From positions 62,001 to 126,000 of the forward strand of contig NZ_JAGGMN010000001.1 in NCBI RefSeq assembly GCF_017875325.1: 64,000 nucleotides of DNA, given 5' to 3'. The notes below the pieces were generated by a model, which made no database searches, was not told the DNA's origin, and saw only the letters and a program-made list of their open reading frames with translations. A program made the translations under genes and the position numbers. Origin of the DNA: Methanofollis sp. W23. Lineage in GTDB: Archaea > Halobacteriota > Methanomicrobia > Methanomicrobiales > Methanofollaceae. Positions within the stretch are counted from its first letter, which is position 1. Each line of letters starts with the position of its first letter. Below, piece by piece: positions 11,279 to 58,389 of the stretch.

Positions 11279-13104
11279 TCGTTTCAACCTCAGTTTGCCA
11301 CCCCGCTCAAATCTCTCTGATTGTGGCGAAATAGAATTTGACGATCCCGGCTCTGTAGAATTCCTCAGGACAGGTATCTTTGGCGGGGGGCTTGGCCGCC
11401 CCCCGGTCCCCCCGCAATACGATAGGGCGAGGACTGCAACCCCAAATATTTGTCTATTGTGCCTTCCCTGCCCTATCTTCGTCTCTGGGGTCCGGGGGCG
11501 GAGCCCCCGGCGCGATATATATGGGAAGGCGTGAGTTACGGTCACACCAAGAATTTGTGAGGGTTTCTACAGAGCCACAATTCCAGGGATTTGGAAAAAC
11601 GGCTTTGTAGAATTGGGCATGAACCCCGGGCTCACGCATACGCGATGAAAATTCTTGGTGGTCTCCGGGTTATGGATCCTTGCTCTCTCTTCAGAGCAGG
11701 ACCTACATGGGACCACCACTTCATTGCCGCCCCCACCTCTCTCTTCGTCGTGGGAGGTCAGGGGGGTGCAACCCCCCGGCGCGAGATTCCAAGGAAGATT
11801 CTCCAATGAGGGCGGCCATCTGATCGACGTGCCTTCCCAAAGGCTTGCGCCAGCCTTCTCACGACTGATATGCAGAGGGCAGAAGCATCTTCTGAATGAT
11901 CAGCCCTTCGCCTTCCCGGCCCTCTCTTCATCCATGGGGTCTGGGGGCAGAGCCCCTGGGTGTGATCAAATCTTCATTCAAACCTATAGAGGGGATCTTC
12001 GAGATCATTTTCATGGTAAACCACTGTGATGGTTCTCTGTTCGCAAGGATGAAGGTCAAGACTCGATCCAGTTCTGAGATGATATTTTCATCCCATATGC
12101 TTGAGGCGTTCTTTCGCCTCATGAAAAATTCTACAGAGTCACTATTGTGGATATTTAAGAGGCATGAAGTACCTCCAGAAGCCAGATGGCAAACTCGAGT
12201 TTCAGCGATCGGTAAGAATCGTGCTGGTCCTCATTTTGAGGGGGGTATGTCTTTTTCCAGGACAGCCCAGAGGAGAAACAATTCTAATCTGCTCACGCGC
12301 GTCGGGAGCGACACTTCCGCACCTCAGAAGATTGAGCATGGAAGGCACCATTGATGACCATGAAGAGAAGAGGGTGTCTCCGTCCTCAGTCCTATCATGA
12401 TGTGGGATGACTGAAAAGAGCATGAAAACACGGGGAATCAAAGATTCCCGCTGAAAGAAAAATGTGGAGCATTTTCTTGGAAGGAAGATCTTCAATCTTC
12501 CGTGAATCAGCCCTGTGGAAACCCTCGTCAATTCTCGGTGCGAGCGCGATTTAACCACCTTCCTCTATCTTCTCGCCGGGGACGAGTGCCGCCCGGGCCC
12601 CCTGGATGGAGATGGGACTTGGAAGGCACATATTGAATATGAAGGGAGTATTACCGGCCCCCGCCACCGTGAGGAACTAGGAGAATTTCTACAGAGCCTG
12701 TGAATCCTTGATTTTCGAGGATCCGGGGGGCGGCAAGTGGCAAGTCAAGAACAAAAAGTTGCCAAAAGAATGCACCTGAACAATAGAAATTTTAGGGCGT
12801 AAAGAAATCGTCTGCACTGGTCTCTGTATGGGGGTCTGACTGTCCCATGGTCCCCCACATGAACAAAAGCGCCGGGGATGACAACACTTTCTTCATGCTC
12901 TCCCTGGAACCCCCCATGACAAAGATAGGGGAGGGACGGGGATTGTGGAGCACCCTCCCCGCCGCCCTGACATGAAGAAAGGGATCAGGGATCCTCCCCC
13001 ATCTTGGAACGCCGCTCAGAACAGTGCTCCTGCGATATGCCTGAGGCGTGCTCTCGGTTCATGCGTGATTCTCAGGGCCAAAAATGGAGGCCCCTGTGCC
13101 AGGT
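11279..13104. repeat. 1.8-kb gene-free stretch of dispersed elements
   Basis: No supportable gene in 1.8 kb. In order: a complete element at 11349-11576 (listed separately); a second starting 11601 (GGCTTTGTAGAATTGGGCATG) and running to about 11790 with a GTGCAACCCCCCGGCGCGAG end; a GCCTTCCC stem half near 11910-11960; a TTTTCATGG module near 12003; a minus-oriented palindromic end at 12060-12135; a terminus TTTCTACAGAGCC ending at about 12700; and a degenerate palindromic module at 13030-13080. Short open frames here change with the repeats and lack codon bias. Confidence 0.6.
11349..11576. mobile_element. MITE-like element, 228 bp, degenerate 8-bp flanks
   Basis: Starts GGCTCTGTAGAATTCCTCA and ends GTGAGGGTTTCTACAGAGCC, so the two ends are inverted copies. 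Inside are two GC-rich stem modules, the second bounded by GCCTTCCC and GGGAAGGC. Flanks are ACGATCCC (left) and ACAATTCC (right), matching at 6 of 8 positions, both differences being transitions. No coding capacity. A second element begins only 24 bp to the right. Confidence 0.65.
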
Positions 13105-16096: not shown

Positions 16097-16918
16097 GAGG
16101 GGGGACTCTTGGGACGATAAGATCTCTGCAACATTTTGATAGTCTTTTGGAGGTCATCCCAAAACTACTCTGATCCTGAGAGGCGAGTGGAGGGAGTTTC
16201 TGAAGCATGGTGTCGTTCAAGAGGTTGTGCCGCCCCTATCCTCATCATAGGGGGGTCCGGGGGGTCTCCCCCGGCATGAGAGAGCAAAGAATCATTCTTT
16301 ATCTGGCTCTGTAGAAACCCTCACCTCTTGTGTGGGTGAGATGTGTGTTCCCCCCCTTCCCACCTCTTTGGCCGGGGACTCTGCCCCCCTGGACCTCCGG
16401 GACCACGATAGGGTCGGGAAGGCAGAATAGATGACCATAAAGAGAATGCTGCCATCCTCGGCCTATCGTGTCGTGGGGGACCGGGGGGCGGCACGCCCCC
16501 CCGAGAGATTCATCAGGAGGATTTCTACAGAGCCCTTTATCCTTTCTGTGGGCGGTACGTCTGATCGGTCTGTCTTTCTTCCGTCGTTCGCACCGGAAAC
16601 GCCCCCCAAACCCCGAAGAGTGGCGATTAAACCGTGTGAGGCAGAGCAATGGCCAGAAAGTGTCCTGACCCCCAGGATTGATCGAGCCAAGGGTATTTTA
16701 AGAATGTGCTTTTTTTTAAAAAATATAAAATTAGATATATTTATTGCCCTCAAGAATGGAATTGAATTGTGGTGGAGGGCTGTTGCATTGACGATGCCGA
16801 TGATTCATGGAATACAGACGACCCGGAAGATCCTACAGGTGACGGCATCCTAAGTTACGCAGATTTCAGAACACAGACTCACCCCGGAGAGGTTCCGAGG
16901 TATAATTAAACATTTTTT
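16097..16918. repeat. gene-free stretch with a complete element
   Basis: No gene supported. A module TTTTGGAGGTCATCCCA lies at about 16146-16162, a GC-rich stem at 16220-16285, the complete element at 16305-16534 (separate entry), and an AT-rich block at 16695-16750 whose role is unclear. TATAATTAAA at 16901-16910 is only 9 bp before the next ATG, too close to be its standard TATA box. Confidence 0.55.
16305..16534. mobile_element. MITE-like element, 230 bp, with 7/8 target duplication
   Basis: Begins GGCTCTGTAGAAACCCTCACC and ends AGGATTTCTACAGAGCC, inverted termini of the same family as 11349-11576 but with the internal modules in reverse order. Flanks are CTTTATCT (left) and CTTTATCC (right), an 8-bp direct repeat with one mismatch. 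Internal landmarks are CTTCCCACCTCTTTGGCC, the GGGAAGGCAGAA counterpart, and GATGACCATAAAGAG. No open frame of interest. Confidence 0.75.
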
Positions 16919-17800: not shown

Positions 17801-18049
17801 GGCTCCGTAGAAATTCTCACCCATTCCTGGTATGAGAGTGACTTATCCATCTTCCCCACACCAAACGTGCCAGGGGCGCTGCCCCCGGACACCCCCACGG
17901 TGAGGAGAGGTGGGGGCGGCAGGTGAGTGGTGTCCCCCCTGTGGTGTCCTGCGCGAAAGGAGGAGCGCAGGTCCACAAATCCTGGAGACCAACGATCATG
18001 TTCATGCCGTATGCGTGAACCGGGGATTCATGCCTGATTCTACAAAGCC
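17801..18049. mobile_element. MITE-like composite element, 249 bp, with 7/8 target duplication
   Basis: Begins GGCTCCGTAGAAATTCTCACC and ends GCCTGATTCTACAAAGCC. Left flank ATTAATTC, right flank ATTCATTC: 8-bp direct repeat with one mismatch. The left part has the stem GGGGCGCTGCCCCC; the right part has the palindrome GCGTGAACC / GGGGATTCATGC. It therefore joins modules that occur separately elsewhere. It sits immediately after the stop codon of the PGF-CTERM-like gene, so the mRNA probably reads into it. Confidence 0.75.
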
Positions 18050-27195: not shown

Positions 27196-27588
27196 GCGGG
27201 GCCTTGGTGGCACCTCGTCCGGGCGCTGTAGGATCGAGCATGAACCCCCGGCTCACGCATACGCGATTGAACATGATCCATCGCGCTTCTCCAGAGTGTG
27301 TGGGCCTGTACTTCCCCTTCAGCGCTGGACGCGCTGTGAGACCGCCCCCGCATATCCTCGTCATGGGGGGTCCGGGGACGCCGCGCCCCCGGCGCGAGAA
27401 GGCCGCCCCCCGAACTCCCGGCCACACAGGAGGTCGAGGAGGGCGGCACACGTTCTCTCCACACAATAGGTGAGGGTTTCTACAGGGCCGATCTCGTTCA
27501 ATTGCATCGGGGCGACGATTTTTCGTTCTCGATCTGACACTCGTATCAAACCGCTATCTTTTTCACTCTCAGAGGAGGATCTTCACCC
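27196..27588. repeat. gene-free stretch holding one composite element
   Basis: A unit from 27222 (GGCGCTGTAGGATCGAGCATG) to 27489 (GAGGGTTTCTACAGGGCC), 268 bp, with the palindromic module, a GCGTGGGG-type block and GGACGCCGCGCCCCC stem. Its ends match the element family. The 8-bp flanks CTCGTCCG and GATCTCGT do not match in register, so transposition is not shown for this copy. GAGGAGG just before 27589 serves the next gene. Confidence 0.55.
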
Positions 27589-27909
27589 ATGGGTGGCGAG
27601 GTCTACCAGGCGCAGGTGCTCAAGAACTTTTTTGAGACGATCACCGGACCTGACCGGAACCTCACCAGGATCTTCATGTGCGTCCTTTCCCTTGCAAAAC
27701 TCAGGATGGAACCCCCCGAGACAGTGGCGCACCTCACCGACCAGCTCCGTAAGAGCCGCCAGCACCGCGAGCTCTCCATTGATATTTTAGATTATATGTG
27801 CTCGTGCGCGGGTGAACTCGAGATGGTCCCGGTCCAGACAGCCTTCGGGGTCAAGGACGTCAGGGAGATCGCCGAGACGTTTGAGGGGATCTCGATCGAC
27901 TCGTTCTGA
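27589..27909 (+). CDS. conserved small protein of unknown function
   Basis: 106 residues, preceded by a strong GAGGAGG site at 27571, which fixes the ATG. Predicted largely helical (VYQAQVLKNFFETIT ... RIFMCVLSLAKL) with a CSCAGELEMV motif near 70. No recognised domain, no membrane segment. Coding character is supported by the ribosome site and GC-rich third positions. The stop is followed by a repeat. It stands alone. Confidence 0.6.
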   Translation: MGGEVYQAQVLKNFFETITGPDRNLTRIFMCVLSLAKLRMEPPETVAHLTDQLRKSRQHRELSIDILDYMCSCAGELEMVPVQTAFGVKDVREIAETFEGISIDSF

Positions 27910-28230
27910 GGGTATGGGGTTGCACCCCCAGGACCCCCCGCGGATGAAGAGTGGCGGGGGGTCGCACCCCGTCGTCACGATCATCGCTCTGCCTTCCCGC
28001 TCCCATCGCCATCCCGGGGGTCCGGGGGCACACCGAAAAGCGGAGGATTTCCTCACCATATCTCCTGCTCTCTTCTGGGTGGGGGAGGTCTGGAGAATAT
28101 TGGGATGACCTCTACGAAAAATCATCATGACTACCGCGGGGGATATCCATGTGGTCTATCCATGGCGTGCTCTCGCCTCCACGCGTGAGACTCTGGTGTA
28201 CCTGGACGAATGAAGCACCGATCCCCTCAA
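27910..28230. repeat. gene-free stretch with element fragments
   Basis: Plus-oriented stem module with GGGGTTGCACCCCC and GGACCCCCCGCGGATGAAGAG from about 27920, then CTGCCTTCCCGCTCCCATC and GGGGGTCCGGGGGCAC to about 28045, a truncated unit without right terminus. ATATTGGGATGACCTC near 28097 is the reverse of the GGAGGTCATCCCA module. No gene is seen. Confidence 0.5.
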
Positions 28231-32199: not shown

Positions 32200-33784
32200 C
32201 TCCCACTCCAGTGTGTTTGAGAATGTGCAGGTCTTTCTTGATTATGCGATCAATTTTCCTGTATATATCGTGTGTGATATGATTCTGGACGTTTGTTCTC
32301 CGGAAAAAAGCCATGGGCAAGAATTTCGACTCTATAGAATTGGGCATGATCCCCAGGTTCAAAAGAATCGTGGATCTTCTGGGTCGTGCACCGATTGATA
32401 GCCAACTCCCGTCTCTCCTCGTCGAGATACCGATGACAGTTCTGTGATGCGGGCGGCATGTCTGATGATCATCACGTCTCCCCACATCCGCAGGATGAAG
32501 ACGGGGTCGGGAAGGCAGAATCGATGACCATGAAGAGGGCACCGCCGTCCTGAACCTATCGTGTGGCAGGGGTCCGGGGGGGCGGCACTCGCCCCCGTCA
32601 GAGATTTATCAAGATTATTTCTACAGAACCGGAGTAACAGTTTTCGGGATAATTTTCATGGAGGTCATCCCAACACTCTCCCGCCTTCCCCTTCGCAGAA
32701 GATAGCAATGGATGTGGTGGGGTGTTCCTCCGCTTTTCGGTGAGCCCCCATGTGTTCATGCCTTCCCACACCATTGGCTGGGGGCGCTGCCCCCGGACCC
32801 CAGGGATGGCGATGGGAGCAGGAAGGCAGAGTAATGATCAAGAAGACGGGCTGCGATCCCCCGCCACTCTTCATCCGTGGGGGGTTCGTGGGCTGGCACG
32901 CCCGCCGGCAGAGAGAGACATCAAGAGGATTTACTATGAAAGTGATCTGAAGATCATCTCTTTCGGTTTGCATGATGATCATTTGAACTCCCCATATCCC
33001 GTTGAATCAATCCTACACAAATAGGATGGACCCTCCCTCATTGTGATCGGCGCTCTGCCTTCCTGACCCCATCTTCATGCCAGGGGGTCCGGGCGGCACC
33101 CGCTCCCGGCATCGGGATCTGGGGCGGCGTGATGATCTGGTGTGCCGCTCTCACCGCAGAACCTTCATCCTCGTCTCGCGCCGGGGGAACCCCCACCCCC
33201 CACGACGAAGATGGTCGAGAGGCGGCGATGAACCCAGATCTTCCAGATGTCCTGTCATGAGGAAAAGGATCCCTCTCCATCTCGAAACGCCGCTCAAAGA
33301 AATTTTCATCGCGTATGCTTGAAGCCTGGGTTCATGATCGATTCTACAGAGCCGAGCACTGGAACCATCATACAAACCTCCCAGGTCGATCGCCAGGATT
33401 ATTTTCATGGAACATATCCCACAACTCTCATGGGGGAAATATCTCCTCGACCTGAAATGCATCCTTTCTGAAATTCGAAACGCTCTCCTCCACGGGGAGA
33501 CTCCGCCCCCCGGACCCCCGCAGGGGCGATTGATCAGGGATGGCAGAGCAATGGATCAGACGAGGATCATCTGTTCTGGATCGAGTGCGTGCCGTCTGCT
33601 TCAATTTTCATGAGAAGGGGCTACTGTCATTCTCCCAATCGTGTGGCGGGGGGACTGGGGGGCGGCGAGCCCCCCAGCATAAACTATGCATTCAAAATTT
33701 CTGGAAAGGAATGTTTCGGTTTGAGGGGATCTTCACCCCAAGAGTGTTTTGGGATATCCTTCTCTTCAAAAAAAGAGCGTAACC
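32200..33784. repeat. 1.6-kb gene-free stretch rich in dispersed elements
   Basis: No credible gene. Units: palindromic module from 32327 (CTCTATAGAATTGGGCATG); reverse unit 32455-32627 with GATGACCATGAAGAGG, stem and terminus TTTCTACAGAACC; TTTTCATGGAGGTCATCCCA at about 32653; a unit 32755-32945 with GCCTTCCC/GGAAGGCAGAG and GGGGGCGCTGCCCCC; a similar half at 33055-33115; a minus-oriented composite from about 33160 to 33353 ending ATTCTACAGAGCC; another TTTTCATGG module near 33400; and a stem GGGGGGCGGCGAGCCCCCC near 33660-33680. This is the densest array in the window. Confidence 0.6.
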
Positions 33785-38560: not shown

Positions 38561-39043
38561 GGATCTTTGCTCTCAGGCTTCATCGTAGGACGAGAGTCTG
38601 ATGGTGAGTCAAGAACGAAAGGTCGCCACCATGATGCGATAGAACAAGATCTCTCTCCTCGCGTGAAGAGAGCGTAGGGAGTGACCCCATCCGCTTCATG
38701 ATCCTCCCCTCTGCCTTCTTGCCCCCATCGCCATCCCGGTGGTCCGGGGGCGGCGCCCCCGGCGCAAGGATATGGGAAGACATGATGACCAGACATGCCG
38801 CCCCCCAATCGCAGCATCTTCCCTGGAATCTCGCACCGGGGGGCGAGTGCCCCCCGGACCCCCCCACGACGAAGAGAGGCGGGGGCGGCGAGTGAACACG
38901 ATCCTCACCTGCTCTTCAGTCTTAAAAAAGAGAGACCACGTGACAGGAAATTATCATCCCGTATGCTTGAGCCTGGGGTTCATGCCCGATTCTACACACC
39001 CCATTTAACATGATGTTCTGATCCTCCCGTCTCCAGATCCATA
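38561..39043. repeat. gene-free stretch with composite repeats
   Basis: Contains a GCCTTCTTGCCCCCATCGCC stem module with GGGGGCGGCGCCCCC to about 38785, then a minus-oriented composite from 38825 (GCACCGGGGGGCGAGTGCC) through the purine block to the palindrome GGGGTTCATGCC and degenerate terminus TTCTACACACC at about 38999. No gene is present. Confidence 0.55.
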
Positions 39044-39053
39044 TTTTTATATT
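39044..39053 (+). promoter_or_regulatory. TATA box of FkbM methyltransferase gene
   Basis: TTTTTATATT is centred about 28 bp before the ATG at 39077, giving a predicted transcript start within a few bases of the ATG. Confidence 0.55.
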
Positions 39054-39076
39054 CCGTCTCTCCTCTCCACAAACCA

Positions 39077-39769
39077 ATGAACATCGTCTTCCTGCTCAAG
39101 GACCTGCTCCAGACCAGGGATCTCCAGGCATGGGTGAACCGACGGTTCAGGGACGAGCACCGCGTCCCGCTGGACCGCCGGGTTTTCAGGACGGTCTCGA
39201 CCCATGACGGCACGCGCTATCTGCTCTCGCATGAGGTCGGGTCGGTGAGCGATGCGGCAGTGAGGTACCGCCTCTCCGGGATCAGGAAGGACGATATCGT
39301 CATCGATCTCGGGGCAAATGTGGGGGGCTTCTGCATCCCGGCCTCCAGGTACTCAGCGCATGTCTATGCCGTCGAGCCGATGACCGCCGACGAGTTGCGC
39401 CAGAACATCGCCCTCAATGGAGTGGAGGTCACGGTGATCGAGGCGGGCCTCGGCGACGGGACCGAGCAGGAGATCGCCTGGGGGGAGGAGGTACGGCGGG
39501 TCAAGACGATGACGCTAGGGCACCTCAAGGAGGTCTGCGGTGGGTGCGATGTCCTCAAGTGCCACTGCGAAGGGGGGGAGTGGTCTGTCAGGCCCGAGGA
39601 ACTCGACGGGATCCGCCGGATCGAACTTGCCTACCATCCGAAGAATCTGAATGGGGCTGACCCGGAGGTGTTGCTTGGCTTCATCAGGTCGCACTATGTC
39701 GTTGAGTGGGAGGAGGTCGATGGCCATGCCCTCCTCCATGCTCGACTGATGGATGAATGGGAACTGTAG
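39077..39769 (+). CDS. FkbM-family methyltransferase
   Basis: 230 residues. SAM-binding motif I IVIDLGANVGGFCIPAS and post-I VYAVEPM; CDVLKCHCEGGEW corresponds to the LKIDxEG motif of FkbM O-methyltransferases, with Cys replacing the usual Asp (KCHCEG). These often methylate sugars of surface glycans; substrate not shown. The terminus CTGTAGAAATCCT runs through the stop codon, as if a repeat end supplied the last codons. The gene stands alone next to top6A. Confidence 0.75.
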   Translation: MNIVFLLKDLLQTRDLQAWVNRRFRDEHRVPLDRRVFRTVSTHDGTRYLLSHEVGSVSDAAVRYRLSGIRKDDIVIDLGANVGGFCIPASRYSAHVYAVEPMTADELRQNIALNGVEVTVIEAGLGDGTEQEIAWGEEVRRVKTMTLGHLKEVCGGCDVLKCHCEGGEWSVRPEELDGIRRIELAYHPKNLNGADPEVLLGFIRSHYVVEWEEVDGHALLHARLMDEWEL

Positions 39770-40590
39770 AAATCCTGGCTCTGTTAAAAATTTCTTCAGA
39801 AGTGTGAATCCAGAGCTGACCACGTCTCCACCCTGTGTGGACTTGATAGGCAGAGGGCGTCACAAATCTTTGAAACGTCCCCATCTCTGCCTTCCCCGCC
39901 CCATCGCCATCCTGGGGGTTCCGGGGGCAGCGCCCCCGGCGCGAGCGCATGGGAAGGCGTGAGAATAGGAACAATGGAGAGGGTGGATGGCAGGTGATCA
40001 GGGGGTCGCCCTTATCGTAATTCACCGTCGTCTCGCACCGGGGGGCGAGTGCCCCCCGGACCCCCCACGACGAAGATAGGTGGGGGCGGCGATGAAACCG
40101 CATTTTCTAGATGTCCTGTTGTGAGAATAGGGATCCGCGTAGCACTCTGTAGCGCTGTTCAGAGCAATATTCATCAGGAGGTCATCCCAAAACTCTCCAG
40201 CCCTTCTCCTCACCGATGAAGCGCGATGGATGACAATGAAGAGATCCCAACTTTTTCATCGCTCACCCATGCATTCATCGCCTTCCCACCTCTTTGGCCG
40301 GGGACTCTGCCCCCGGACCCCCGGGATGGCGATGGGGACAGGAAGGTAGAGCGATGATCATGAAGACGGAACGCAATTCTCTGCCAATCTTCATCAGCGG
40401 GGGGTCCGGGGGGCGGCAAGCCCCCGGTTGAGGAGAGCGTTGAGAATTTCTGGAGGGAAGCACTTCAGTTCGAGGAGATCTTCAACCATAGAGAGTTTTG
40501 GGATATGCTCCAGGTATGCTTGGGCCCATCATGCCCGACTCTACAGAATCAATGAATGGATTAATCCGTACCTGGACGCAAACAATGGGG
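39770..40590. repeat. gene-free stretch with composite repeats
   Basis: A terminus GGCTCTGTTAAAAATTTC starts at 39777; stem module with GCCTTCCCCGCCCC and GGGAAGGCGTGAG at 39889-39965; CACCGGGGGGCGAGTGCC block at 40037-40105; CAGGAGGTCATCCCA near 40175; reverse stem unit 40268-40450 with AAGGTAGAGCGATGATCATG; and a palindromic end at 40505-40540 (GACTCTACAGAATC). No gene is seen. Confidence 0.55.
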
Positions 40591-53281: not shown

Positions 53282-53714
53282 ACTATAGTCTGTCGTGCCA
53301 GTAATTAAGTTTCATTTTGAATACATAGAAATACACAGACGCAATAATTGAGTTGCCCAAATTTGGTGCTTTATATCCTAATTTCTGATTTTTTGAAATT
53401 ATTGAGTTTGAGATGTTGCACATCTGATTGAATCGGTAAAAATCCTCTTAACGGGGTACTGGGGAACAGAAGTTTGGGTGATCAAAATGTCTGGGAAAAA
53501 GAGAATGATATGTCATATGTTGTTTTGAGGGGGGGAATTTGTTCTCTGGTTATCTTGAGGAACACTAAGTATTCTAGAGTTTGTGTTCTCCCTTCAGATA
53601 TCTCCTATATCCACTGAGAGGAACGCAGGACTATTTACTGAATGCAGTAAATAGTGTGTACAAAGAGTTTCTAGAGGGCCAAGTTATTATTGGGATTCCC
53701 TCATATATCAAACC
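53282..53714. other. AT-rich island spacer
   Basis: 433 bp divergent region between a methyltransferase and flippase copy 2. No repeat element of the dispersed family is recognised. Short T-runs and TATA-like blocks occur (for example TTATATCC near 53372). It may hold promoters for both sides, none convincingly mapped. Confidence 0.35.
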
Positions 53715-55193
53715 GTGTTTTCTCGATTTCGCTACTTCTCTCGCATCATGGGTATCGATCCAGTCCGTCGGCAGAGCCTGATCAGTCTCGCCTCTGCTGT
53801 AGGGCTTACTTTTTTTGGATTCCTTGCCACGATGTATTTTGCTCACGTACTTGGTAAGGCTGCATATGGGGTCTATGCCCTTTTTCTTGCTTATTATGGT
53901 ATTTTTAATCTTATCGGAGATGGGGGCTTTGGTGGCGCAGCAGTAAAGCGGATTTCTGAAGGAAGAGAACAGAATGAGTATTTCACAGCTTTTCTCGTAC
54001 TCAGGGTGATCCTTCTTGCGCTCTCGGTGACCGCGCTCCTTGCCCTCCGCTCGTTCATCGACGATCTTCAGGGTGAAGGGATAGTGTTCTGGGTGATGCT
54101 TGCACTTATCATTGCTGTGTTCCTGGGAGTTACTGCAAATGGTATCTATGGCGAAGGGAAGGTTGGCGTGAACCAGAGCGGGGCTTTCCTGAATAACCTT
54201 GTAAAAATTGTTCTCCAGGTTGTTGCCGTCTTCTTTGGGTATGGTGCCGCCGGACTTGCCGGCGGGTTCGTCGCTGGTCTTTTTGCTGGGGGTCTCTTCA
54301 ACCTCAGGTTCCTCTCTCTCAAACTGGCACGGTTCACCGGGCACCACTTGCGGAACCTCATCACTTTCTCCTTCTGGATCTTTCTTGCTTCCAGCGGTGC
54401 TACCATCTTCTCGTACGCCGACACGGTCCTCATTGGCTACTTCATGTCCACTGCCGACGTCGGGGTCTACCGGATCGCCTTCCAGTTCACCGCGGCCGCC
54501 ACCTTCACCACCACAGCGCTCCGTACTACTCTGTATCCAAAGATCAGCCGCTGGCACGCCGACCGGCACCCCACCTGGATCGCCAATTCCCTCTCCCGTG
54601 CCTTCACCTACTCCCTCCTCCTCGCCGTCCCCGTCGCAGTCGGCGGCTGGATCCTCGGCGACCGCCTCCTCTACTTCTTCTATGGTGCAGGGTTTGCCGA
54701 AGGGGCGGCGGTGCTCGGGATCCTCCTCCTGGTGCAGGTGGTCAACGTCTTCATGTACCTCCAGACGATGGCCCTCAATGCCATCGACCGCCCCCGCGAA
54801 TCCTTCTATGCCACCGGGACGGCGGCGGTCGTGAACATCGTCCTCGACCTCGCCCTCATCCCCACCCTCGGGATCGAGGGGGCGGCGATCGCCACGCTCG
54901 TGACGATGCTCGTCAATGCCGCAATCGCCCGCCACTATCTTGCAAAACAGATCTCGGTGCACCTCGAGCGCGGCCCCACCTTCCACATCCTTCTCGCGGC
55001 CGGGCTGATGGCCCTCGTAATCCTCCTGTACCGTTTGCTCGTCCCCCTCGCCAACGTCTTCGTCGTCCTCGCCGCCGTCGCCCTCGGCGGGATTATCTAC
55101 GGCCTGGTGCTCCTGAAAGCCGACCGCGGTATCCACGACGAACTCCGCGACCTAGTCGTGCAACTCGGGGTGCCCTGGCCGCGGTGGCTGTGA
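53715..55193 (+). CDS. Wzx-type polysaccharide flippase, copy 2 (mosaic)
   Basis: 492 residues, GTG start, same length and architecture as copy 1 at 14588. The first 250-300 bp use AT-rich codons (for example line 53881-53940, 24 GC of 60 by hand count) and the rest is GC-rich. The region 54808-54940 is identical to 15681-15813 over 133 bp, including third positions. This looks like an AT-rich allele joined to the local GC-rich copy by gene conversion. The function is export of lipid-linked oligosaccharide. It marks the right border of the island. Confidence 0.9.
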   Translation: MFSRFRYFSRIMGIDPVRRQSLISLASAVGLTFFGFLATMYFAHVLGKAAYGVYALFLAYYGIFNLIGDGGFGGAAVKRISEGREQNEYFTAFLVLRVILLALSVTALLALRSFIDDLQGEGIVFWVMLALIIAVFLGVTANGIYGEGKVGVNQSGAFLNNLVKIVLQVVAVFFGYGAAGLAGGFVAGLFAGGLFNLRFLSLKLARFTGHHLRNLITFSFWIFLASSGATIFSYADTVLIGYFMSTADVGVYRIAFQFTAAATFTTTALRTTLYPKISRWHADRHPTWIANSLSRAFTYSLLLAVPVAVGGWILGDRLLYFFYGAGFAEGAAVLGILLLVQVVNVFMYLQTMALNAIDRPRESFYATGTAAVVNIVLDLALIPTLGIEGAAIATLVTMLVNAAIARHYLAKQISVHLERGPTFHILLAAGLMALVILLYRLLVPLANVFVVLAAVALGGIIYGLVLLKADRGIHDELRDLVVQLGVPWPRWL

Positions 55194-56125
55194 AGGCTGG
55201 AGAATAGAGTGCAAAAGAGTTGATCTGCTGCTGGTGCCAGAAATATTCAGGTAGTTTCCCGCGGCTTGCACGGGGCACTCTTCTCCATAAGAAGATCTCT
55301 CAACTTTTCCTGCCCATAGGGCTCTTCTCAGGGGCTAGTGATTGGGACCGCCGGACTCCTGTGTGGAGATTAGGCGAGGTAGACCACGTTGAAGAGCCTA
55401 TCCCGATCTACTCAGGCAATCATTGATCTCAAGAATGACTGACGCCTACCATTCATGCTCCTGGAGAATGATTATCAGGGGTCGAATGCCCCTCTGAACT
55501 CAAAAATCAAAGATTATCTCGACTACCTCCGGTCGTCACCCTCAGGATGGAGAGTGGTGATGGACGGCACCACCTCTTCATGATCATCTCTCCGTCTTCG
55601 CCTTCCCGTTCCTATCGCTATCCTGGGGTCTGGGGGATGTGAGCGACGGCGAACTTGAGAAAATCCGTGATTTTCGATAACGTCCCCAGTGCGATCTGAT
55701 GAGAAGGCGATGAGTGTGTGTTCATGTTGTGAAGAAATGAAGGTTTTTCGGCTTTGTAGAAATCCTCTTGATCGAATCTCTCAGACGGGGGGGTTGCACC
55801 CCCCGAACCCCCGCCACACGATAGGTCGAGGACGGCATCCCGTATTTCAAGATCTTCTATTCAGCCTTCCCGCCCCAATCTTCATCCCGGGGGTCCGGGG
55901 GCAGCGCCCCCGGCGTGACTGTGTGGGAAGGCGATTGAGTCATCCTTGCACCGAGAGGAAGTGAGGGATTCTACAGAGTCACTATCTCCTTTTTTTATCT
56001 TCTGTGGGGGTGGGGGAGGAGAGTTTTTGAGATGACATAAAGGTCAGGATATGATTGAACCAGATCCAGAGACCATGATGAACATGGTGAGATACCACCG
56101 GAATGGTTAATATTCTAGCAACAGA
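55194..56125. repeat. gene-free stretch with a complete element unit
   Basis: No gene. Fragments at 55590-55640 (GCCTTCCCGTTCC and CCTGGGGTCTGGGG). A full element unit is at 55750-55979: starts GGCTTTGTAGAAATCCTC, contains GGGGGGTTGCACCCCCC, and ends GAGGGATTCTACAGAGTC. Its 8-bp flanks (GGTTTTTC; ACTATCTC) do not match. A T7 run follows at about 55987. Confidence 0.6.
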
Positions 56126-58040: not shown

Positions 58041-58081
58041 ATAACATTTTTCTCTCCAGTCAGGAGAAGGATAGATTTTTG

Positions 58082-58347
58082 GGCTCTGTAGAATCGGGCA
58101 TGGGGCGAGAGCACGCCTCAGGCATTAAAACCTCTTGATGAATATCTCTGCGGGGGGCTAGCCGCCTCCCGGTCCCCACGCGCGAAGATAGGCGGTGGAC
58201 GGCAGTACGCTCTTCATGGCGATTGATTTTGCCTTCCCAGCCCTATCTTCATCCCGGGGGTCCGGGGGCAGAGCCCCCGGCGAGAAGATGGGGGAAAGCG
58301 GTTGAATCGCGCTCGCACCCAGAAAAGGTGAGGGTTTCTACAGGGCC
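58082..58347. mobile_element. MITE-like element, 266 bp, perfect 8-bp target duplication
   Basis: Starts GGCTCTGTAGAATCGGGCATG, ends GAGGGTTTCTACAGGGCC, and is flanked on both sides by GATTTTTG (58074-58081 and 58348-58355), identical 8 of 8. The left half is the palindromic module; the right half is the stem module GGGGGCAGAGCCCCC. No gene. It is the best evidence that this repeat family transposes. It lies upstream of a broken HicBA. Confidence 0.88.
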
Positions 58348-58389
58348 GATTTTTGATGATGTGCAGGGTAGATCCGACTATCAGGATAG

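What the first reader, a model, noticed from the sequence alone, without database searches (positions are those of the whole stretch)
58074..58355. A 266-bp non-autonomous transposon-like element with perfect 8-bp target duplication
The unit at 58082-58347 has inverted termini (GGCTCTGTAGAAT left; complement of TTTCTACAGGGCC right) and is bracketed by GATTTTTG on both sides, 8 of 8. That is seen directly. It carries no gene, so any movement needs a transposase in trans. 8-bp duplications are known for the IS6 and IS1595 families; which family mobilises it is unknown. It is the best-preserved member of a repeat family that fills gene-free stretches across the window.
Basis: partly seen in the sequence, partly recalled or inferred. 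Interest (0 to 1): 0.85.

Follow-up and report, generated by a model that had tools for sequence, protein, structure and literature searches.

The report
Archaeal MITE, orphaned from its transposase
This is a short gene-less jumping element in a methane-producing archaeon (Methanofollis-type); it demonstrably inserted at this spot, belongs to a family of probably a few hundred copies, and its ends match a transposon (IS5 family) that still lives in related species but is not found in this genome.

Summary
It is no isolated case. The genome holds 302 exact copies of the end GGCYCTGTAGAAW (0 for the reversed control). In an 844-kb sample, 39 end pairs carry a 7-8/8 duplication against 0.19 expected. 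The duplication is exactly 8 bp and AT-rich. So this is a MITE that transposed. IS1595, IS6 and ISL3 transposases are not detected in this genome. A ~1008-bp IS5-family element with the same two ends and 8-bp duplications is present in relatives. In this near-complete genome that transposase is not detected, not even as a recognisable fragment. The window copy is a variant: the standard ~231-bp element with 35 bp added just inside its left tip. A structured-RNA function is not supported (1 of 32 pairs compensates). Overall: a new, large member of a well-known kind (MITE), with an orphaned transposase and one probable MITE-bounded composite carrying an acetyltransferase gene.

The parts
58074..58081 (.). 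left target-site duplication GATTTTTG
   Evidence: single copy (AGTTTTTG / GTTTTTTG) at the empty site in G002 and G009
58082..58347 (+). 266-bp MITE, C-type left end and B-type right end
58082..58094 (+). left terminal inverted repeat GGCTCTGTAGAAT
58092..58126 (+). 35-bp extra segment absent from the 26 other copies aligned; the first 44 bp of the element resemble the C-type (GGGCATG...) end class
58127..58347 (+). standard family core and right end, about 71-91% identical to dozens of other copies
58335..58347 (-). right terminal inverted repeat (GGCCCTGTAGAAA on the - strand), B type
58348..58355 (.). right target-site duplication GATTTTTG
16305..16534 (-). standard 230-bp copy of the family, duplication 7/8 (CTTTATCT/CTTTATCC)
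11349..11576 (+). standard 228-bp copy, duplication 6/8
17801..18049 (-). 249-bp member with one C-type end, duplication 7/8
55741..56000 (.). related copy (tips GGCTTTGTAGAA / GACTCTGTAGAA), strongly repeated sequence

Best explanation
[quoted passage not shown] An IS5-family DDE transposase supplied in trans recognises the ~12-bp tip GGCTCTGTAGAA plus subterminal sequence at both ends and inserts the element at an AT-rich 8-bp site, which staggered cutting and repair duplicate. This copy landed 33 bp after the wecB stop codon (element plus its duplication), next to a hicB/hicA remnant, after the lineage split from G002 and G009. Shown: ends, duplication, empty site, family, autonomous relatives with the same ends and the same duplication length. 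Inferred: that this particular transposase lineage moved the family; that the source element was later lost from this genome, so that the copies are now immobile and decaying unless an IS of this type is re-imported.
For: 8/8 duplication and ends. 39 of 258 end pairs with 7-8/8 against 0.19 expected, exactly 8 bp, AT-rich. Empty site in G002 and G009, alignment continuous across the junction with one copy of the target. IS5-family elements of 1007-1009 bp with the same kind of ends and 8/8 duplications: L169 in same-genus G005 (GGCTCTGTAGAATTCCT / GGCCCTGTAGAAACCCT, GAACAATC), several copies in G020 (L167, L179, L191, L195), a decayed 954-bp copy in G009 (L183). Transposase assigned by NF033579 (IS5, 180 bits, cut-off 140) and PF01609. 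The two IS ends match the two commonest MITE end classes: A (IS GGCTCTGTAGAATTCCT, MITE GGCTCTGTAGAAATCCT) and B (GGCCCTGTAGAAACCCT in both).
Against: No transposase of this type is detectable in the window's own 2.9-Mb genome (tblastn E<=1e-3; PF01609 finds only an unrelated interrupted transposase), so the donor is inferred from relatives. MITE and IS share only ~17 bp at each end; the cores look unrelated. No autonomous element with C-type ends was found. The hybrid structure is single-copy, so its left end could have been replaced in place after insertion.
Confidence: 0.87

Rival explanations
1. A MITE mobilised by an IS6- or IS1595-family transposase.
For: 8-bp duplications and GG-initial ends; IS6 ends carry a conserved GG tip and cTGTt motif (PMC7986276).
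Against: No IS1595 or IS6 transposase in the own genome. The two IS6 hits among 20 relatives (G020) have no GGCTCTGTAGAA ends nearby. The conserved IS6 'caaa' motif is missing from the end. An IS5 element with matching ends and duplications exists.
Confidence: 0.03
2. A functional structured RNA or regulatory hairpin family whose repeats merely look like a transposon.
For: The 266 nt fold better than shuffles (z -4.3); the core holds G+C-rich hairpins shared by the copies.
Against: Only 1 of 32 consensus pairs shows a compensatory change across 27 copies and the covariation term is nil. No Rfam match. Duplications and empty site show insertion. Hairpin content is usual for MITEs.
Confidence: 0.04
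3. The copy was inserted as a standard A/B element and its left tip was later replaced (gene conversion or a small insertion), so that the 266-bp hybrid itself never moved.
For: The 35-bp addition is absent from the 26 other copies aligned, and no other genome hit spans the whole element.
Against: Mixed-end elements with duplications occur elsewhere (C/B, C/A, C/C), so such hybrids can evidently be mobilised.
Confidence: 0.35

Closest known systems
IS5-family insertion sequence of about 1008 bp in Methanofollis-type relatives and G020 (8-bp duplications; ISH1-like subgroup from memory, not tested)
   Same: Same 12-bp tips, the same two subterminal end types over about 17 bp, same 8-bp duplication.
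   Different: The IS carries a ~300-aa DDE transposase; the MITE has no gene and an unrelated G+C-rich core.
Haloquadratum walsbyi MITEs (PMC3119063)
   Same: Archaeal MITEs sharing only terminal bases with a resident IS; at least one family there also lacks a functional transposase.
   Different: 55 MITEs over 5 families per strain there; here a single end family with 302 exact ends, and the transposase not even found as a fragment.
Chunjie (Geobacter), Correia (Neisseria), ERIC MITEs (review PMC10969869)
   Same: About 200-240 bp for the first two, multicopy, largely intergenic.
   Different: Different ends, hosts and transposases.
TIME-COMP composites (Tn3-derived miniature elements, PMC13367494 abstract)
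   Same: Two miniature elements bounding cargo, as in the 1998-bp unit at L220:12756-14753.
   Different: IS5-type ends and 8-bp duplication; archaeal host; acetyltransferase cargo.

Membership tests
MITE (miniature inverted-repeat transposable element) | short (<~600 bp), no transposase gene | tested here: met
   266 bp, no transposase ORF
MITE (miniature inverted-repeat transposable element) | terminal inverted repeats | tested here: met
   GGCTCTGTAGAA / GGCCCTGTAGAA
MITE (miniature inverted-repeat transposable element) | target-site duplication of fixed length | tested here: met
   8 bp at this copy and 39 sampled pairs at 7-8/8
MITE (miniature inverted-repeat transposable element) | multicopy | tested here: met
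   302 exact ends; 77 BLAST matches to the element
MITE (miniature inverted-repeat transposable element) | empty site in relatives | tested here: met
   G002 and G009
MITE (miniature inverted-repeat transposable element) | ends and duplication length shared with an autonomous element | tested here: met
   IS5-family elements in G005, G020 and a remnant in G009; none in the own genome
IS5-family-derived (mobiliser) | transposase in the autonomous partner scores as IS5 | tested here: met
   NF033579 180 bits over cut-off 140 for the G018 copy; PF01609 for the G018 and G005 copies
IS5-family-derived (mobiliser) | the transposase acts on these MITE ends | not testable with these tools
   needs a mobilisation assay
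IS5 ISH1 subgroup | subgroup placement by transposase phylogeny | not tested
   8-bp duplication fits, from memory; no ISfinder reference set at hand
IS6-derived MITE | IS6 transposase with matching ends | tested here: not met
IS1595-derived MITE | IS1595 transposase in the genome | tested here: not met
ISL3-derived MITE | ISL3 transposase in the genome | tested here: not met
structured non-coding RNA family | compensatory covariation | tested here: not met
   1 of 32 pairs, covariation term 0.2; no Rfam match

The most novel reading that the evidence does not exclude
In this archaeon a large MITE family evolves by swapping ends: any two of at least three end types (A, B, C) that share the 12-bp tip can be moved together by an IS5-type transposase. 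This yields hybrids like the window copy and composites in which two MITEs carry a foreign gene (an A+T-rich double-GNAT acetyltransferase gene in a 1998-bp unit with an 8/8 duplication). The transposase source has since been lost, leaving roughly 9% of the genome as orphaned, nested repeat debris.
Probability: 0.4. Interest if true: 0.5.

Novelty: new member of a known kind. Interest (0 to 1): 0.33.

Why it matters
It also shows a large archaeal MITE load (302 exact ends, about 9% of sampled bases matched at five or more other sampled places) in a genome with no detectable cognate transposase, a clean case for studying MITE boom, orphaning and decay, and whether MITEs can move genes between archaea and bacteria.

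Tried and rejected
IS1595 (PF12762), ISL3 (PF01610) and IS6 (PF13610) as mobilisers: not found in the own genome. Structured RNA: fold z -4.3 but no covariation, no Rfam match. A test of whether tips co-vary with the resident transposase: G003 carries the sister IS with GGCTTYGTTGAA tips and no GGCYCTGTAGAAW, but its GGCTTYGTTGAA ends mostly belong to full IS copies, so no matching MITE expansion was seen; inconclusive. The own genome's only PF01609 hit (L196) is another transposase type (IS1634-like by eye); GGCTCTGTTGAA tips near it have unmatched flanks. Searches of the open paper library gave no paper describing MITEs in Methanofollis among those listed; subscription journals and ISfinder were not searchable.

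Full report
What was checked. The window lies in a 2.87-Mb chromosome with a 37-kb second contig.

More than chance. GGCYCTGTAGAAW occurs 302 times exactly in this genome and its reversed control never. The whole element has 77 BLAST matches in the genome, the long ones covering mostly positions ~46-266. In a systematic sample (39 stretches of 20 kb plus the window, 844 kb) there are 258 pairs of inward-facing tips within 2.5 kb. Of these, 39 have a 7/8 or 8/8 flank match, against 0.19 expected from displaced flanks. Column by column, identity is 34-39 of 39 inside the 8 bp and 7-13 of 39 just outside. The duplication is therefore exactly 8 bp. Targets are AT-rich at the middle six positions, with AT-rich flanks. 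Subtracting the chance distribution from the histogram leaves roughly 88 real pairs in the sample (my arithmetic), i.e. very roughly 300 two-ended elements per genome. About 9% of sampled bases are matched at five or more other sampled places.

Empty site. A query of joined flanks (one duplication copy kept) was searched in all twelve genomes of the genus, the own one included. G002 aligns across the junction (query 2-699, 80%) and G009 likewise (259-706, 82%). In the multiple alignment the relatives read ...agata-AGTTTTTGATGA... and ...ta-GTTTTTTGATGA... where the window has GATTTTTG-element-GATTTTTGATGA. G003 also aligns through this stretch but with a deletion around the target, so it is not counted.

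Which transposase. IS1595, ISL3 and IS6 profiles found nothing in this genome. Following end pairs about 1 kb apart in relatives led to IS5-family elements: a 1017-bp copy in G018 (flanks not matching), a decayed 954-bp copy in same-genus G009 with CGAAAATC on both sides, and, by protein search, 1007-1009-bp copies in G005, G020 and G003 with 8/8 duplications. The transposase is IS5 by NCBIfam (NF033579, 180 bits, cut-off 140) and PF01609. Its two ends in G005, GGCTCTGTAGAATTCCT and GGCCCTGTAGAAACCCT, correspond to the two commonest MITE end classes here, GGCTCTGTAGAAATCCTC and GGCTCTGTAGAAACCCTC. Beyond about 17 bp MITE and IS ends do not match by eye. In the window's own genome, 99.7% complete, the transposase gives no match at E<=1e-3 and PF01609 gives only an unrelated interrupted transposase. 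Sister genome G001 also has 340 tips and no transposase, but it is an 81%-complete draft, so that absence is weak. An orphaned MITE family has a precedent in Haloquadratum, where a family's cognate transposase copies are all broken (PMC3119063).

Anatomy of this copy. Aligned with 26 other copies it is the standard ~231-bp element with 35 extra bases after position 10. Its first 44 bp resemble a third end class, C (GGCTCTGTAGAATCGGGCATGAACC...), which is common in the genome. Mixed-end elements (C/B, C/A, C/C) also carry perfect duplications, so the common 12-bp tip appears to be enough to pair ends; this is inference. Whether the hybrid moved as a hybrid or was altered in place is open, because the junction is single-copy.

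Age. Copies are 60-94% identical pairwise, mean 74%. Many pairs have 6-7/8 duplications. Both fit an older, decaying family; the window copy is one of its better-preserved insertions.

RNA reading. The element folds well (z -4.3), but across 27 copies only 1 of 32 pairs has a compensatory change, and Rfam is silent. Hairpins are usual in MITEs; no RNA function is supported.

Verdict. A real, ordinary-in-kind MITE in an unusually loaded archaeal genome, with its mobiliser family identified in relatives. New member of a known kind; interest moderate.

Noticed in passing
L220:12756-14753 (G000:C1:652756-654753): 1998-bp unit bounded by MITE-type ends with a perfect 8/8 duplication TATTTTGT, enclosing a 28-41% G+C segment with a ~375-aa double-GNAT acetyltransferase gene (best plasmid matches 30-46%, partial): a probable MITE-bounded composite transposon with foreign cargo. 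About 0.015 such 8/8 pairs expected by chance among 534 tested.
   Followed up: partly
window:58360-58853: Remnant hicB/hicA toxin-antitoxin genes next to the element. The hicB start region lacks 5 nt relative to G002 and G003, and the same gap is present in G009, which has no insertion, so that frame change predates the MITE. hicA also looks frameshifted (read by eye).
   Followed up: partly
G001 (81% complete draft, same genus): 340 exact tips in only 2.4 Mb and no transposase match: an even denser family than in the window's genome.
   Followed up: no
L278:1501-1745 (G003:C1:143213-143457): 245-bp element with GGCTTCGTTGAA/GGCTTTGTTGAA tips whose right part is the 3' end of the IS5 transposase gene and whose left part is a G+C-rich segment: looks like an intermediate in the birth of a MITE from its IS; flanks do not match in register.
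   Followed up: partly
window:14580-14879 and 53707-54006: 300-nt direct repeat, 74% identical (family D4), inside coding regions; probably paralogous genes, unrelated to the MITEs.
   Followed up: no
window:11345-12698, 27221-28120, 32480-33760, 38606-40516: Gene-poor stretches made largely of nested or truncated pieces of the same repeat families; repeat runs total about 6.5 kb of the window.
   Followed up: partly
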